From Pedobacter montanisoli (GTDB lineage: Bacteria; Bacteroidota; Bacteroidia; Sphingobacteriales; Sphingobacteriaceae), in NCBI RefSeq assembly GCF_022809115.1, contig NZ_JALGBH010000002.1, positions 809,543 to 873,542 on the forward strand: a stretch of DNA of 64,000 nucleotides, written 5' to 3'. The notes below the pieces were generated by a model. It was given only the letters and a program-made list of their open reading frames with translations, was not told the origin of the DNA and made no database searches. Positions 6,988 through 13,657 of this stretch are shown one piece after another; the stretch's first letter is position 1; each line of letters starts with the position of its first letter. Both the position numbers and the translations under genes were made by a program.

Positions 6988-7719
6988 TTAAAAATCCTTG
7001 ACAATATCAGCCATTCCTTCTCCCATGCTGTTTAGAAAATCATCATAAGAGTTTAGAAATTTTGCATTTTTAGGGAGTTTAAAAATCTCGTAATTTATTT
7101 TGCTTGCAATAGCATTGCTGGTTAAGATCTCTGTAACCTCGTAGGTTCTTATCAATACACCATCTTCTCTGGAATGAACGGGATGATATTTTACAAACTT
7201 CAAAACAAGACCTGTTAGTTTGCTTGAAACAAATGAGAAAGGTGTTATTGTTTTGAATACAGGAGCGATATATAATACATGGTGAATAGTGTCATAAGGT
7301 TGACGTTGCCCCTGTTCATTAATAAAAGCCTGAACATAATCAATGTTTACTCTTTTACATTCAAAGCCGTTTAGAAGTGTATCACTTTTTGAAACGATGG
7401 TGTCGATTTTATAAAAGACCCTGTCTTCGTCCTGATTAAATAAGTTTGAGCCAGGATATTCTGAGATCTTAATTTTTGCAATGTACGCAGTGTCTTTTCT
7501 CTTGTTATGTATAGCGTAAAGATTGTTGTCGTTTTTAGGTTTCAAGAGTTCATGAAACATGTCTTTGCTTTTATAGCAATCTTCGCCTATAGTTAAAGTG
7601 GCAAATTCAAATCTGTCAGACCTGTAATTGAATGAATAAAACTGCGCAAACAAGCTATTGGTGGCTATCAATTGAATGATAGCAACACAGAGTATTAAAC
7701 TTTTTATTTTCTTTTTCAT
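6988..7719 (-). CDS. Secreted protein of unknown function in the toxin-immunity island
   Basis: A 243-residue protein with a clear Sec signal peptide (KKKIKSLILCVAIIQLIA, cleavage probably after LFAQ at residue 26). I recognise no domain. The mature part is strand-rich with several Asp/Tyr/Lys clusters; the Y-K-I-D-T-I and G-F-E-C-K-R segments recall GLPGLI-type periplasmic proteins, but I would not assign it. Its start lies two bases after the stop of the last immunity gene, so it belongs to that transcript and could be a further component (for example a periplasmic immunity or chaperone protein) or an unrelated passenger. Confidence 0.7.
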   Translation of the reverse strand: MKKKIKSLILCVAIIQLIATNSLFAQFYSFNYRSDRFEFATLTIGEDCYKSKDMFHELLKPKNDNNLYAIHNKRKDTAYIAKIKISEYPGSNLFNQDEDRVFYKIDTIVSKSDTLLNGFECKRVNIDYVQAFINEQGQRQPYDTIHHVLYIAPVFKTITPFSFVSSKLTGLVLKFVKYHPVHSREDGVLIRTYEVTEILTSNAIASKINYEIFKLPKNAKFLNSYDDFLNSMGEGMADIVKDF

Positions 7720-7721
7720 TT

Positions 7722-8465
7722 TTAAGACAATTTCAAAAAATCATACTTGTCTTCGTATTTTTCCAATGGTCGGTACGGCAGCAATTCCTTCGGTATTAAA
7801 GGATGATCTGCCTCTACTTCTATACCCTTTAGCCAGGCTAATTTTGCGTAACCTAAGGCGGGTACAGAAATATAATCCTGGGCAATGCCCATATATTTGT
7901 TACGCTTTTTGTGATCTTTCAGTAAGAGCATCAGAGCTTCTTCAATCATTGCTTTGTCCTTTTGCAGTATCCCTTTAAAGTACATAAGATCGGGGATGTT
8001 AATCTTTCCCTTTTGTGTAGAAGCAATACGCTCATAGGTTGCTATATCTTTATCTAAAGCCTGCCAATCTTCTTTAATGATGCATTGCATTGCATGAATG
8101 AGGCTTCCGCTTTTGATGGTATGGGCAAACCAAGGGTGCGTCAAATCAGCATAACGGCTAACTAAAGATATATTATCACTTAGTATCGCCAATGTGATAT
8201 GATGAATACCGCTGTCAAGTAAACGATCTTCAAACCGCGTTATAATATGTTCATCTAAAATACCGCAGGTAAAAAAGTCTTGCTTGGCTAATTGTAAATT
8301 ATTTTCAATGAATAAATGATAAAAACCAAAAACTTGATTGCATCCCCAAAGAAACCTAATATCGCTTACATATTGGACAGGCTCTACATTCTTATCATTA
8401 ATTCTAATTACTGATTTTTGCTCATCGATCTTAGAATTTTCAAATATCTCTTTTAAGGAAAGCAT
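7722..8465 (-). CDS. Imm49-like immunity protein, copy 1
   Basis: An all-helical cytoplasmic protein of 247 residues, one of four paralogues. Its second half, from THPWFAHTIKSGSLIHAMQC (about residue 110) to DHPLIPKELLPYRPLEKYED, is nearly identical to copies at 9428 and 10304, while residues 1-105 are quite different. The arrangement of helices, the KLAWLKGIEV...IPKELLP ending and the place behind a toxin tail suggest family Imm49; that name rests on memory of the family and not on a search. Its ATG is one base after the stop of a relic toxin tail, the same spacing as for the intact toxin and its immunity gene. It presumably neutralises a toxin tip now lost. Confidence 0.75.
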   Translation of the reverse strand: MLSLKEIFENSKIDEQKSVIRINDKNVEPVQYVSDIRFLWGCNQVFGFYHLFIENNLQLAKQDFFTCGILDEHIITRFEDRLLDSGIHHITLAILSDNISLVSRYADLTHPWFAHTIKSGSLIHAMQCIIKEDWQALDKDIATYERIASTQKGKINIPDLMYFKGILQKDKAMIEEALMLLLKDHKKRNKYMGIAQDYISVPALGYAKLAWLKGIEVEADHPLIPKELLPYRPLEKYEDKYDFLKLS

Positions 8466-8466
8466 A

Positions 8467-8529
8467 CTAATAATTTGCTAATTTTAAAACTACTATATCT
8501 CCTGATGCTTTATCCACTCCGGTTACAGT
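8467..8529 (-). pseudogene. Relic toxin C-terminus 1
   Basis: Twenty codons plus stop reading TVTGVDKASGDIVVLKLANY, identical at the protein level to the last 20 residues of the intact toxin at 11043-13250, but without any upstream toxin frame. The stop is followed after one base by the ATG of immunity copy 1, as at the intact pair. Codons differ at several third positions, so it is an older homologue and not a very recent duplicate. Confidence 0.85.
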
Positions 8530-8555
8530 AAATATATTTTCTTACAACAAACCTG

Positions 8556-8589
8556 AAACAAAGCCACTCCTTATGAGTGGCTTTTGTTT
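8556..8589 (-). terminator. Terminator after immunity copy 2
   Basis: Hairpin with arms AAACAAAGCCACTC and GAGTGGCTTTTGTTT around a short loop; on the minus strand it directly follows the stop of the immunity gene at 8588 and ends in a T-containing arm. The CCACTC/GAGTGG core recurs in the terminators at 10263 and, in altered form, 9387. Confidence 0.7.
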
Positions 8590-9331
8590 ATTTAAGAAAT
8601 GGATAATCTTCGTAGTGATCTAAAGGTTTAATTGGCATTAACTCTAATGGTACCATCTCATTTTTCAAATCAATCTCGTAACCTTTAATCCAAGCTAATT
8701 TGCATAAACCGGAAACGTCCGGAGAGAAGAACCTGCTGATTAAGGGATCATCATTTCGTTTGCTATCTGTTTTTATCAGTTGTTTTAAACCTGCTTCTAT
8801 CAATCCTTCTTCCTTTGACAAAAAACCTAAAAAAACATCCACCATGGGTGCCCACCACTTGAGAGTGCGAACCTTTACAAATCGCTCAATTTTTTGAATA
8901 TTCTCCTCCAGTTTTTCCATTTCATTTGACAAGATATTTAAAACCGCATGTGAAATCTGAAAACCAACACTAAGTTCATGGCATTTGGAGTTCTGTAATT
9001 TACAAAAACGTTGTATCAAATCGTGATTGTCGGACAAAAGTGCGTAGCTAATGGGATTTATTCCTGTATCCAATATGCATCTTTTAAGATTAACTCCTCT
9101 GTACTCGTCTATACGAGCGGCCTTGTAAAAATAGTTTCTGGCAAGATCTAAATCTTTTAAGGAATATATAGCATGAACTGCAAATACTATGTAAGTCCCA
9201 CCCATAATAATCAGGTTAAAATTCGGATCGCCGCCAGTTTTTAATTTTTGTTCTACAATTTGCTCATCGTCGAGCCTTTCATCATAAATTGTTTTAAGAT
9301 GTTCAAATCTTTCCATATTAGTAGTTGTCAA
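8588..9331 (-). CDS. Imm49-like immunity protein, copy 2 (divergent)
   Basis: A 247-residue paralogue that differs from the other three copies along its whole length, including the C-terminal half (KLAWIKGYEIDLKNEMVP then LELMPIKPLDHYEDYPFL keeps only the frame of the family ending). The helical pattern and positions of conserved Leu/Tyr/Pro residues agree with the family. Unlike copies 1, 3 and 4 there is no toxin tail in the 97 bases upstream. It has its own downstream terminator. It may protect against a different toxin variant or be an older acquisition. Confidence 0.7.
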   Translation of the reverse strand: MTTTNMERFEHLKTIYDERLDDEQIVEQKLKTGGDPNFNLIIMGGTYIVFAVHAIYSLKDLDLARNYFYKAARIDEYRGVNLKRCILDTGINPISYALLSDNHDLIQRFCKLQNSKCHELSVGFQISHAVLNILSNEMEKLEENIQKIERFVKVRTLKWWAPMVDVFLGFLSKEEGLIEAGLKQLIKTDSKRNDDPLISRFFSPDVSGLCKLAWIKGYEIDLKNEMVPLELMPIKPLDHYEDYPFLK

Positions 9332-9386
9332 GTTTCTTTGTACCCGTTAATAGTCTTTTCAATCTTAGATCAGTATTAAAGATTAT

Positions 9387-9420
9387 AAAACAAACCACTT
9401 TTTTTGAGCGGTTTGTTTTA
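9387..9420 (-). terminator. Terminator after immunity copy 3
   Basis: Strong hairpin with arms AAAACAAACCAC and GCGGTTTGTTTTA (one G-T type mismatch) around a T-rich loop, starting eight bases after the stop of the immunity gene at 9428 on the minus strand. Confidence 0.75.
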
Positions 9421-9427
9421 TAGCTAG

Positions 9428-10162
9428 TTATTTCAAAAAATCGTACTTGTCTTCGTATTTTTCCAACGGACGGTACGGCAACAGTTCCTTAGGTATTAAA
9501 GGATGATCTACCTGCACCTCAATACCCTTTAGCCAGGCTAATTTTGCGTAACCTAAGGCGGGCACAGAAATATAATCCTGGGCAATACCCATATACTTGT
9601 TACGCTTTTTATGGTCTTTTAGCTGGAGTAACAACGCTTCTTCAATCATTCCCTTGTCCTTTTGCAGCATCCCTTTAAAGTACATAAGATCTGGGATGTT
9701 AATCTTTCCCTTTTGTGTAGAGGTAATGCGCTCGTAGGTTGCAATATCCTGTTCTAAAGCTGGCCAGTCTTCTTTAATGATACACTGCATGGCGTGAACA
9801 AGGCTGCCGCTTTTTATGGTATGGGCAAACCATGGATGGGTTAAGTATGAATAACGAGTTATCAATTCCAGATTATCGCTCAATAGCATATAGCAAATAT
9901 GATCTATGCCCGCATCCAAAAGTCGATCTTCGAATAATTTTATCTGAAACTCATCTAATTTACCGCAGGTATCAAAACTCTTCTTTGCTTCCTTAAAGTC
10001 CTTATATTTTATAGCATATATGGCAAATGTTCGATTGCAATACCAAAGTCCGCGTATTTGTCCTTGAATATTATTAGCTAATCTAATTTGCTCTAACGTT
10101 TCCTTTTCTGCAACACGCTCATTAGCGAATAGTTCCTCAACGGGTACTCTTTGATCTTTCAT
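9428..10162 (-). CDS. Imm49-like immunity protein, copy 3
   Basis: A 244-residue paralogue. From about residue 108 (THPWFAHTIKSGSLVHAMQC) to the end it is almost identical to copies 1 and 4; residues 1-100 are its own (MKDQRVPVEELFANERVAEK). The switch from divergent to identical is abrupt, as expected from gene conversion or recombination within the conserved half. A relic toxin tail lies 11 bases upstream of the ATG, and a terminator follows. Function by inference: immunity to a lost toxin tip. Confidence 0.75.
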   Translation of the reverse strand: MKDQRVPVEELFANERVAEKETLEQIRLANNIQGQIRGLWYCNRTFAIYAIKYKDFKEAKKSFDTCGKLDEFQIKLFEDRLLDAGIDHICYMLLSDNLELITRYSYLTHPWFAHTIKSGSLVHAMQCIIKEDWPALEQDIATYERITSTQKGKINIPDLMYFKGMLQKDKGMIEEALLLQLKDHKKRNKYMGIAQDYISVPALGYAKLAWLKGIEVQVDHPLIPKELLPYRPLEKYEDKYDFLK

Positions 10163-10173
10163 TTTTTTACTTT

Positions 10174-10248
10174 TTAATATTGGGCTAATTTAAGTACTAC
10201 AATTTCACCTGAAGCCTTATCCACTCCGGTTACAGTTTTAGTTATTTC
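10174..10248 (-). pseudogene. Relic toxin C-terminus 2
   Basis: Twenty-four codons plus stop reading EITKTVTGVDKASGEIVVLK then LAQY, matching the last residues of the intact toxin (which has D for E and N for Q). An in-frame TGA precedes it, so no toxin frame remains. It sits between the terminator of copy 4 and the start of immunity copy 3. Confidence 0.85.
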
Positions 10249-10262
10249 TCATAACTAATCTA

Positions 10263-10296
10263 AAGCCAAACCACTCAAAAAGAGTGGCTTGTTTTA
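10263..10296 (-). terminator. Terminator after immunity copy 4
   Basis: Hairpin with stem CCACTC/GAGTGG and five-base loop, extended by AAGCCA/TGGCTT partial pairing, followed on the minus strand by weak T tracts. It lies eight bases after the stop of the immunity gene at 10304. Confidence 0.65.
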
Positions 10297-10303
10297 TATG
10301 TAA

Positions 10304-11041
10304 CTATTTTAAAAAATCGTACTTGTCTTCGTATTTTTCCAATGGTCGGTATGGCAACAGTTCTTTAGGTATTAAAGGATGATCTACCTGCACTTCAATA
10401 CCCTTTAACCAGGCTAACTTTGCATAACCTAATGCAGGTATAGAAATATAAGTCTGCGCAATGCCTGCATGTTTGTTTCTCTTTTTATGATCCTTAAGCA
10501 ATAATAGCAACGCTTCTTCTATCATAAGTTTATCCTTTTGTAGCATTCCTTTAAAGTACATAAGATCCGGAATATTGATCTTTCCTTTTTGCGCAGAAGT
10601 TATACGCTCATAAGTCGCAATATCTTTTTCCAAAGCCTGCCAGTCTTCATTAATGAAACATTGCATGGCATGCACCAAACTACCACTTTTAATAGTATGG
10701 GCATACCAAGGGTGTGTTAGTTTGGCATAACTTTTAATGAGAGAGTTTTCGTCACATAAAAGGGCGTAAGAGAAATGATTAACACCATAGTCCAGAATAC
10801 GAGAATTATAATTAGTAATTAAATATTCATCTAATCGTCCACATATATAAAAATACTGTTTGCATTTCTCTATATTATTTTCAACAAACAAAGAATGTAA
10901 TGCAAAAATCTCATTATAATACCATAGCATTCGCTTATCACTCTCTGATTGTATTCCATCTGTTTCTGGCAAATAAATTCTTGTCAATGCTTCATGCTCA
11001 TTTTTCAACATTTCCACATATAGTTCCTTAAGTGATAGCAT
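10304..11041 (-). CDS. Imm49-like immunity protein, cognate copy 4
   Basis: A 245-residue member of the same family, directly downstream of the intact toxin; the toxin stop (TAA) and this ATG are separated by one base, so it is the likely cognate antidote. Residues 1-105 are specific (MLSLKELYVEMLKNEHEALT at the start), while the half from THPWYAHTIKSGSLVHAMQC to the end is shared with copies 1 and 3. No signal peptide: protection would act in the cytoplasm, where a nuclease toxin would arrive. Confidence 0.8.
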   Translation of the reverse strand: MLSLKELYVEMLKNEHEALTRIYLPETDGIQSESDKRMLWYYNEIFALHSLFVENNIEKCKQYFYICGRLDEYLITNYNSRILDYGVNHFSYALLCDENSLIKSYAKLTHPWYAHTIKSGSLVHAMQCFINEDWQALEKDIATYERITSAQKGKINIPDLMYFKGMLQKDKLMIEEALLLLLKDHKKRNKHAGIAQTYISIPALGYAKLAWLKGIEVQVDHPLIPKELLPYRPLEKYEDKYDFLK

Positions 11042-11042
11042 A

Positions 11043-13250
11043 TTAGTAATTAGCTAATTTTAATACTACAATATCCCCTGAAGCCTTATCTACTCCAGTT
11101 ACAGTTTTGGTTATTTTGCTTTTGTTTGCATTGATAACCGAAGCTAAAGATGATAGACTTCCTCCTTGATTTATCATTTTTGTAATAATATTATCAATCC
11201 AATCATTGCTCATTTGTGGTGGCAATAATGTATTATTATTCCTTGGGTTTAGCTTAATATTCCCTGCTGCCTGAACCTGTTTGGCTTCATTAATTATGAT
11301 CTCCTCTACATTGCCAGCGGCATCTTTTTTGATATATACTCCATCAAATCCGTTGTTAGTGCCAATCTTGGCTTCGTGTTTTACAAAACCGTTTGTTGCG
11401 AAAATATCATCACACAATTGTTCAGTTTTGCTTCCTGCTTCCCCAAGCACCCCATTATCGCCATAACGTACAATATCGTCAATTTTATTTTTAAGATTTG
11501 TTGCTACGGGTTTAATTCTAAAAGAGGCCTGATCTATCAAAGTACGGCTAAGGTTGGTGAGTTTATTATCGGCTGGTTTAACTGCTTTGAGTGCCTTAAC
11601 TGCATTGTGGCTAAAAGCATCAACCGCGACTTTGATTAAACGGACGCTCTTACCGTTTTTAATAGCTAGAAAACCAATCTTACCTGCTGCCTGGCTTAGT
11701 GGCTTGCTTAAGGATTGTCCCGCCGTTTTAATCCACTTTCCACCTGTCGCCACCCAGCCTGTTACTGGCACGGCACCACCAAAGCTCATTGCTGCATTGA
11801 TGCGATCTCCTTCTATAAAATAAATGGCACCATTGGTAATGTCTGCAATTTCTCCGATCAGCGGAACCAATCCTGCAAGATCAAGCGCAAAATGGATCTC
11901 TTTATTGAGAACATTCCATGTTGCGGTAGCTGCAATTTCTGTTTTTGTCCAAGTGGGATGTTTAGCCTTTAAATAGACCATCTGTATTTGGATGTCTATT
12001 ACATATTGGAAACCCCACGGCGGAAATAAAACAGGAGTATCGCCCTCCTCATATAAGTTTTCTACTGCTTCCGGATTATTGTAATAATAATCCTCTATCT
12101 GCCCAAAGCTGAAAGACTGGCCCAATTCGGCAACATATACGCTCTCACTTCTGTCGTGCAGATCGTTTCCGGCATATGGGTCATAGTTATAGTCTGGTTC
12201 ATCAGGATCTGTAATAACTGGTAATATGGGCGGGGGTGTATTGCAATCAGGATTTTGATGTACCATTAGCTTAGCCCCTGTAGCGCCGCTATGTACCTGA
12301 ATTGGGCCTGTTGGGGGTTGCGTGGTATCGCATGGATCATAATCTGGCGGGGTTGTTGGAGAAGTTCCACCGCCGCCTCCAGACCCGCCTCCTGAACCGC
12401 CACCAGAGCCGATACCATCGTCATATTCATAGCAGTCGGTAATGTCTTTGGATGATACACGCCAGCCAGCACGATTATCACCGTCCATATTACATTCTTC
12501 TCCCGGCCAGTGCCCATCACCGGTACATTGATATGCTACTATGTAATAATAAGTGGTGGTGTAGCAATCCTGATAGACCATACTGGTTTTACCGGATGTG
12601 CCGGGCTTAACAGCTCCGCCCAAGGTTTTGGTTGTTGAATTTTTATTAAGCTCACCATTAGGTGACGTAGAGCCTGTGCCCGGCAAAGCTGTCGAGGCCG
12701 ATTTAAGGTAGGTTACGCTGATATCGCCTTCAAATTCTCCAGCGTTTCCGGCACGCCATTTAGAAATCCACTTTTGTGTTGGTGCATAGGTATTGATGAA
12801 AGTGAGCGTTCTTTCAGGCGATACATCTACCGTGAGGTTCTGGAAAACGATAGCTCTGGGATTGGACAGTTTAATACTGAATATATAGCTGGTACGATCT
12901 CCGTTTTTAACAATGGTAACACTATCGGTATTGATCTGGAGCCCCTCATAAGTTTCGGGTGTATTGACGGCCATGGTTTTGGCCTTTGAGTTGGCTGTCG
13001 TGAGCATCTTTCCAACGGTGCCCAGAACATTCAGGTCTGTTTTTGTTTTGAAAGAATTGAAGTTTACCTTCTCCATTTGCGGACCTTTCCGGTACTCCGC
13101 ATTTCTTTTGACAAGTTCAGGATTACTGTGTTCTTTTTTGCTCTGGTTAAACAGATCTTTTTTACAAGAGAGGACTGCAATTGCTATAATTGCAAGAAAG
13201 GCTAAAAAGAGGCTGCCTCTTTTTCGGCCCGAAAGCGTGAGTTTAGTCAT
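11043..13250 (-). CDS. Lipoprotein polymorphic toxin with pretoxin domain and PD-(D/E)xK-like nuclease tip
   Basis: The ATG at 13250 gives 735 residues; a TTG 36 bases upstream is in frame but unlikely. The N-terminus is a lipoprotein signal (hydrophobic stretch, then VLSC with Cys29). About residues 30-270 are strand-rich, then a Gly/Ser-rich linker (GGGSGGGSGGGG, near 283-295) and a Pro-rich stretch. Residues of about 454-508 (ALDLAGLVPLIGEIADITNG, then GDRINAAMSFGGAVPVTGW) match pretoxin PT-TG type regions. The last 130 residues carry Glu626, GFDGVY (Asp636) and INEAKQ (Glu655-x-Lys657), fitting a PD-(D/E)xK active site, then QMSNDWID. It is likely a contact toxin cleaving nucleic acid. 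No T9SS tail is seen. The export route is unknown. Confidence 0.8.
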   Translation of the reverse strand: MTKLTLSGRKRGSLFLAFLAIIAIAVLSCKKDLFNQSKKEHSNPELVKRNAEYRKGPQMEKVNFNSFKTKTDLNVLGTVGKMLTTANSKAKTMAVNTPETYEGLQINTDSVTIVKNGDRTSYIFSIKLSNPRAIVFQNLTVDVSPERTLTFINTYAPTQKWISKWRAGNAGEFEGDISVTYLKSASTALPGTGSTSPNGELNKNSTTKTLGGAVKPGTSGKTSMVYQDCYTTTYYYIVAYQCTGDGHWPGEECNMDGDNRAGWRVSSKDITDCYEYDDGIGSGGGSGGGSGGGGGTSPTTPPDYDPCDTTQPPTGPIQVHSGATGAKLMVHQNPDCNTPPPILPVITDPDEPDYNYDPYAGNDLHDRSESVYVAELGQSFSFGQIEDYYYNNPEAVENLYEEGDTPVLFPPWGFQYVIDIQIQMVYLKAKHPTWTKTEIAATATWNVLNKEIHFALDLAGLVPLIGEIADITNGAIYFIEGDRINAAMSFGGAVPVTGWVATGGKWIKTAGQSLSKPLSQAAGKIGFLAIKNGKSVRLIKVAVDAFSHNAVKALKAVKPADNKLTNLSRTLIDQASFRIKPVATNLKNKIDDIVRYGDNGVLGEAGSKTEQLCDDIFATNGFVKHEAKIGTNNGFDGVYIKKDAAGNVEEIIINEAKQVQAAGNIKLNPRNNNTLLPPQMSNDWIDNIITKMINQGGSLSSLASVINANKSKITKTVTGVDKASGDIVVLKLANY

Positions 13251-13573: not shown

Positions 13574-13585
13574 ACGGTGTATCTG

Positions 13586-13657
13586 TGTTCCCGGCGGGAG
13601 TCGAACCCACATCATCAGAACCGGAATCTGACATTCTATCCATTGAACTACGGAAAC
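13586..13657 (-). tRNA. tRNA-Arg (anticodon CCG)
   Basis: On the minus strand: acceptor GTTTCCG pairing with CGGGAAC (one T-G pair), D-arm with AGTTCAATGGATAGAA, anticodon stem TCAGA/TCTGA enclosing TTCCGGT (anticodon CCG), and T-arm GTGGGTTCGACTCCCGC with the invariant GTTCGA. Discriminator A, CCA not encoded. It reads CGG codons. Its 3' end faces the toxin-immunity island, a common place for island integration. Confidence 0.93.

What the first reader, a model, noticed from the sequence alone, without database searches (positions are those of the whole stretch)
7722..13250. Toxin-immunity array that keeps relic toxin tails in front of retained immunity genes
Two short stretches (8467-8529 and 10174-10248) encode the same C-terminal residues as the intact toxin (VTGVDKASG then D/E-IVVLKLA) and lie directly before immunity copies 1 and 3, as the toxin end lies before copy 4. 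This is what remains if new toxin tips plus immunity genes are inserted upstream and old tips decay while antidotes are kept. The layout is a readable history of toxin replacement, in a lipoprotein-type system where this is little described.
Basis: partly seen in the sequence, partly recalled or inferred. Interest (0 to 1): 0.8.

Follow-up and report, generated by a model that had tools for sequence, protein, structure and literature searches.

The report
Immunity array with leftover toxin tails
A soil-type bacterium (Pedobacter) carries one intact antibacterial toxin gene followed by four antidote genes, and in front of each older antidote lies the decayed last scrap of the toxin it once came with, so the locus records past toxin replacements; the process was already known in other toxin systems, but not, as far as I could find, in this lipoprotein-anchored one.

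Summary
Order: lipoprotein toxin, imm4, relic3, imm3, relic2, imm2, relic1, imm1. All four antidotes are Imm49 proteins. Relic 1 differs from the toxin tail at 10 of 63 bases, all synonymous (0 of 20,000 simulations). It therefore diverged while still part of a working toxin gene, which argues against recent copying of the tail with a duplicated antidote. imm2 belongs to a different clade from imm1/3/4 and groups with antidotes paired to toxin genes of this tip family in other Pedobacter. imm1/3/4 are about as far from each other as from an orphan antidote in another Pedobacter, itself preceded by a 42-aa toxin tail. Intermediates exist: one relative has toxin, antidote, whole orphan tip, antidote; another has an orphan tip plus antidote with no carrier. 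The tip is a predicted PD-(D/E)XK nuclease; the relics encode its last two strands. The model (effector displacement with antidote retention) matches Kirchberger 2017 for Vibrio T6SS, so the kind is known; the lipoprotein carrier, absence of the T6SS protein VipB, and the very short tails are the variant. No strain with an intact donor for relic 1 or 3 was found.

The parts
11043..13250 (-). Lipoprotein polymorphic toxin: signal peptide and lipobox, carrier (aa 1-345), middle region, C-terminal PD-(D/E)XK-type nuclease tip (about aa 593-735)
   Evidence: ORF; carrier shared with two other loci in the genome that have other tips; tip alignment A2; AlphaFold2 and Foldseek
10304..11041 (-). imm4, Imm49, presumed cognate antidote of the intact toxin (stop TAA, one base, then ATG)
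10174..10248 (-). relic 3: last 24 codons and stop of a former toxin, 12 of 75 bases and 3 aa different from the present one
9428..10162 (-). imm3, Imm49, clade A
9318..9369 (-). relic 2 (new): decayed toxin tail with internal deletion and frame shift (SKIEKTING ... KLDNY*)
   Evidence: DNA alignment alone not significant
8588..9316 (-). imm2, Imm49, clade B, related to antidotes of toxins in G028, G092 and G105
8467..8529 (-). relic 1: last 20 codons and stop of a former toxin; 10 base changes, all synonymous
7722..8465 (-). imm1, Imm49, clade A, sister of imm3
8560..8589 (-). terminator-like hairpin between imm2 and relic 1
   Evidence: read from sequence; the one exact match to this stem pattern in the genome is here
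9392..9421 (-). terminator-like hairpin between imm3 and relic 2
   Evidence: read from sequence
10263..10298 (-). terminator-like hairpin between imm4 and relic 3
   Evidence: read from sequence
13585..13657 (-). tRNA-Arg(CCG) flanking the toxin; the slot beside it holds no array in relatives

Best explanation
This is a polymorphic toxin-immunity locus in which the nuclease tip and its antidote have been replaced several times. A new tip plus antidote entered between the shared carrier and the older tip. The older antidotes were kept, and each older tip shrank to the last 60-75 bases that lie directly before its antidote. Shown: the relics are toxin ends, relics 1 and 3 diverged under toxin coding constraint, the antidotes come from two clades, and stepwise intermediates exist in relatives. 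Inferred: that the intact toxin is exported through its lipid anchor and kills competitors by cutting nucleic acid, that imm4 neutralises it, that imm1-3 still protect against the lost toxin variants carried by neighbours, that incoming modules were anchored by homology in the carrier, and that the tails persist because they double as the leader from which the stranded antidotes are expressed.
For: Relic 1 against toxin tail: 10 differences in 63 nt, no amino-acid change (0 of 20,000 random placements); relic 3: 10 in 63 with 2 aa changes (p about 0.0008). Synonymous divergence of the relics from the toxin (pS 0.60 and 0.40) resembles that between the C-halves of imm1, imm3 and imm4 (0.48-0.68). 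imm2 groups with antidotes of toxins in G028, G105 and G092 (A/B split 100/100; 86/90 within B) while imm1/3/4 group with the G092 orphan antidote (97/99). Relic tails go with antidote clade: clade A tails end KLA[NQS]Y, clade B tails do not. Intermediates: G292 has toxin-imm-complete orphan tip-imm with nearly identical tip starts and identical imm 3' ends; G322 has orphan tip plus imm with no detectable carrier; G092 contig 435 has a 42-aa tail plus imm with no toxin; a Chitinophagaceae MAG has an interrupted tail before its imm. Tip exchange on the same carrier inside this genome: carrier DNA 93% and 80% identical at two other loci with DUF3289 and peptidase-C39-like tips. Promoter-like motif (TTTG-N18-23-TAnnTTTG, one mismatch) before imm1, imm2 and imm3 at the relic junctions, and before none of 8 paired antidotes.
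Against: No intact toxin paired with an imm1- or imm3-like antidote was found in 147 genomes of the genus, 401 of the family or the GTDB contig scan. The most distal relic (1) is the best preserved, so decay does not follow the order expected from position. imm1 and imm3 are sisters (95/91). The promoter motif is loose, was looked for after the fact, and is absent before two orphan antidotes in other genomes. Function and specificity of every protein are untested.
Confidence: 0.8

Rival explanations
1. Local tandem duplication: a unit of toxin tail plus antidote plus terminator was copied downstream several times and the copies drifted; no foreign toxin was ever displaced.
For: Tails are of similar short length, similar hairpins separate the units, imm1 and imm3 are sisters.
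Against: Differences between relic 1 and the toxin are all synonymous; imm2 is from another clade; imm4 is as close to an antidote in another Pedobacter (69%) as to imm1 and imm3 (68-69%); G292 and G322 show whole orphan tips.
Confidence: 0.12
2. The tails are kept as functional leaders (5' untranslated region or short leader peptide setting translation of the antidote), and selection on that leader explains their conservation.
For: All relics stop within about 1-11 bases of the antidote start; promoter-like motifs sit just upstream of each relic in the window; relics 1 and 3 have no in-frame stop and both carry a GTG that could start a short peptide.
Against: Relic 2 has lost the middle of the tail; motifs absent in G092 contig 435 and the Chitinophagaceae case. 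The tail sequence is explained by conservation of the nuclease's last two strands across genera. Not exclusive of the main explanation, which concerns origin.
Confidence: 0.2
3. The whole array was imported in one piece beside tRNA-Arg, so the displacement history happened in other lineages.
For: mgtE is conserved in relatives, with tRNA-Arg(CCG) beside it in several, but no toxin or antidote lies there.
Against: The carrier is 93% identical in DNA to another locus in this genome, which fits exchange at home, though that locus could also be a later copy. No integrase was looked for systematically.
Confidence: 0.3
4. Chance similarity of short AT-rich sequence.
For: The matched stretches are only 60-75 bases; the relic 2 match is weak on DNA.
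Against: Genome-wide E-values of 1.2e-6 and 8.8e-4 for relics 3 and 1, at the expected places; 20 of 20 aa identical in relic 1.
Confidence: 0.01

Closest known systems
Immunity arrays formed by sequential effector displacement in Vibrio cholerae T6SS clusters (Kirchberger 2017, PMC5361080)
   Same: One active effector followed by stranded antidotes of earlier effectors; a displaced 3' end of an old effector is reported; antidotes from different clades argue against duplication.
   Different: Here the carrier is a lipoprotein, the T6SS sheath protein VipB was not found in the genome, three relic tails persist in one array and relics 1 and 3 are trimmed to 20-24 codons, and all antidotes are one family (Imm49).
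Orphan Rhs/CdiA C-terminal tips with antidotes (Poole 2011 PMC3150448; Koskiniemi 2014 PMC3967940; C-terminal displacement, Jackson 2009)
   Same: Carrier-less tip plus antidote downstream of the active toxin, sharing sequence at the tip start; seen here in G292 (and without a carrier in G322).
   Different: In the window the tips are reduced to the last two strands of the nuclease domain.
tspA fragment between tsaI10 and tsaI11, and esaG/tipC immunity arrays of the T7SS (PMC9484751)
   Same: Fragment of the toxin's 3' part inside an array of immunity paralogues; conserved and variable blocks within antidotes.
   Different: Different toxin, antidote and secretion system; a single fragment there.
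TANFOR polymorphic toxins of Bacteroidetes (PMC7073777)
   Same: Bacteroidota polymorphic toxins with nuclease tips, some paired with Imm49.
   Different: The paper's text does not mention lipoproteins; the carrier here has a lipobox and no Pfam match. The TANFOR domain itself was not compared directly.

Membership tests
Sequential effector-displacement immunity array | One intact effector next to its antidote, followed by antidotes without effectors | tested here: met
Sequential effector-displacement immunity array | Stranded antidotes related to antidotes paired with effectors elsewhere rather than to each other | tested here: inconclusive
   Met for imm2. For imm1/imm3 only an orphan relative in G092 was found and the two are sisters.
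Sequential effector-displacement immunity array | Remnants of displaced effectors at the junctions (supporting, not strictly required) | tested here: met
Sequential effector-displacement immunity array | Related strains showing earlier steps at the same site (evidence used in Vibrio, not a defining feature) | tested here: inconclusive
   No strains of the same species are held; the site in the relatives read has no array; intermediates exist only at other sites and species
Polymorphic toxin system | Conserved N-terminal carrier joined to different C-terminal tips, followed by antidotes | tested here: met
   Three loci in this genome share the carrier with different tips; antidote role of the genes behind the two other tips is inferred
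Imm49 (PF15575) | Profile match above the curated cut-off | tested here: met
   33-54 bits against 30.1 for all four
Tox-REase-1/-6-like PD-(D/E)XK nuclease toxin | E, D, ExK, Q motif and restriction-endonuclease fold | tested here: inconclusive
   Invariant E18, D44, E63-A-K65, Q66 in the tip; predicted fold with best Foldseek hits to SPARDA nucleases at probability 0.91-0.96 but E 7e-3 and TM about 0.4; only Mrr_cat below cut-off in Pfam
T6SS effector | A T6SS in the genome | tested here: not met
   No match to VipB/TssC (PF05943) in the genome; T9SS SprA present. One marker only; a very divergent T6SS could be missed.
Surface lipoprotein toxin | Lipid-anchored and surface-exposed | not testable with these tools
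   Lipobox LSC read from sequence; export not testable here

The most novel reading that the evidence does not exclude
In this lipoprotein toxin family, displacement regularly leaves a fixed short toxin tail because the toxin's last codons become the promoter-proximal leader of the stranded antidote, a built-in way for old antidotes to stay expressed after their toxin is lost.
Probability: 0.2. Interest if true: 0.6.

Novelty: new variant of a known kind. Interest (0 to 1): 0.45.

Why it matters
The tails give a sequence-level record of toxin turnover: because they still show toxin-type synonymous divergence, they discriminate replacement from simple antidote duplication, a point usually argued only from trees. 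It extends displacement arrays to a lipoprotein carrier family in Pedobacter and its relatives, in a genome without VipB, and gives testable pairs (imm1-4 against tips of G028, G105, G292 and the window).

Tried and rejected
Relic 2 by DNA local alignment: not significant, accepted only on protein level and position. Donor search on plasmids (only 28-31% matches) and in viral contigs (none). Idea that the repeated hairpin is a genome-wide terminator repeat: the exact pattern occurs once. Class-level search for the tip: one distant partial match outside the family, so the tip group looks largely confined to the family. Fulvivirga and Chitinophagales (L045, L046) Imm49 loci: no tail detected (L046 begins inside the antidote gene, so it is uninformative).

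Full report
What is there. The window lies in a 3.29-Mb genome; named records of related loci are Pedobacter. On the minus strand, beside tRNA-Arg(CCG), lies a 735-aa lipoprotein (11043-13250) followed by four Imm49 genes. A third, damaged tail lies before imm2 (9318-9369), so each of the four antidotes is preceded by a toxin end; the imm2 case is the weakest, since DNA alignment alone does not show it.

Why the tails are former toxins. Relic 1 has 10 base differences from the toxin tail in 63 bases and every one is synonymous, including TAA to TAG; no random placement in 20,000 gave this. Relic 3 has 10 with two residue changes (p about 0.0008). Copies that lost their coding role at duplication would not look like this. 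Synonymous divergence of the tails from the toxin (0.40-0.60) is of the order of that between the C-terminal halves of imm1, imm3 and imm4 (0.48-0.68), where non-synonymous change is only 0.035-0.07. All four antidotes remain full-length open frames.

Where the antidotes come from. The tree splits the Imm49 sequences into two clades with 100/100 support. imm2 falls with antidotes that sit directly behind toxins of the same tip family in G105, G028 and G092 (86/90). imm1, imm3 and imm4 fall with an antidote of another Pedobacter (G092, contig 435; 97/99), and imm1 and imm3 are sisters (95/91). imm4 is 69% identical to the G092 gene and 68-69% to imm1 and imm3. Simple local copying is excluded for imm2 and unlikely for imm4; one of imm1/imm3 could derive from the other.

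Intermediates in relatives. G292 (another genus of the family): toxin, antidote, a complete orphan tip, antidote. The first roughly 180 bases of the two tips are almost identical and then diverge, and the two antidotes are almost identical over their last 100 or so bases. G322: a 142-aa tip with antidote and no detectable carrier. G092 contig 435: a 42-aa tail before an antidote between unrelated genes. A Chitinophagaceae MAG (L044): a tail with an internal stop before its antidote (12.5 bits, at the right place). In G028, G105, G201, G338 and G422 the toxin is followed by a single antidote. These form a series from whole orphan tip to short tail.

Tip exchange at home. The first 345 residues recur at two other places in the same genome (93% and 80% identical DNA) with different tips, one DUF3289 (56 bits) and one peptidase-C39-like (just under cut-off), each followed by tandem small lipoprotein genes that may be their antidotes. 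This is the carrier homology that replacement by an anchored crossover would need.

Mechanism of the toxin. The tip has invariant E, D, ExK and Q, and its model (pLDDT 82) has a helix, three strands, two helices and two final strands. The best solved-structure matches are PD-(D/E)XK nucleases, though weak. Zhang 2012 (PMC3482391) lists Imm49 with Tox-REase-1 (motif E, D, ExK, Q) and Tox-REase-6. The relics encode the last two strands only and cannot hold the catalytic residues. No VipB gene was found and SprA of the T9SS is present, so delivery is unknown; the lipobox suggests a lipid-anchored toxin.

Why so short a tail remains. In the window a Bacteroidota-type promoter-like motif lies just upstream of all three relics and before none of eight paired antidotes, but it is also missing before two orphan antidotes elsewhere, and it was sought after the fact. 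Hairpins resembling terminators separate the units. I take a leader role of the tail as a possibility, not as shown.

Known or new. Kirchberger 2017 (PMC5361080) describes this model for V. cholerae T6SS, including a displaced 3' end of an effector. A tspA fragment inside the tsaI array (PMC9484751) and Rhs/CDI orphan tips (abstracts only) are related cases. A search for papers joining lipoprotein, polymorphic toxin, Bacteroidetes, immunity and Pedobacter found none in the held library. The kind is known; the lipoprotein carrier family and three minimal tails in one array are the variant.

Limits. One genome per species was available, so closely related strains could not be compared. At the same slot the relatives read carry no array. 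No intact donor for the imm1 or imm3 pair was found. All functions are inferred from sequence.

Noticed in passing
L050:4509-7889 (G000:C2:402508 and on): Same lipoprotein carrier with a DUF3289 tip followed by three related small lipoproteins (one shortened), likely an immunity array of another type.
   Followed up: partly
L051:6126-10080 (G000:C1:352128 and on): Same carrier, with the reading frame shifting between carrier and a peptidase-C39-like tip, followed by a 204-aa secreted protein and three similar 149-aa lipoproteins.
   Followed up: partly
window 7722-11041: imm1, imm3 and imm4 share a conserved C-half (88-92% aa) and a diverged N-half (34-42%), suggesting the N-half sets specificity.
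   Followed up: partly
window 6988-7719: Secreted protein gene starting right after imm1; a weakly similar gene (E 5e-4) follows the orphan antidote in G092 contig 435.
   Followed up: partly
L057:8970-11530 and the L055 toxin: The G292 toxin carrier is split over two frames, and the G092 contig 400 toxin has an in-frame stop, so some toxins of this family look inactivated while their antidotes are intact.
   Followed up: no
window 13585-13657: The slot beside tRNA-Arg(CCG) next to mgtE differs between relatives, a possible insertion site.
   Followed up: partly
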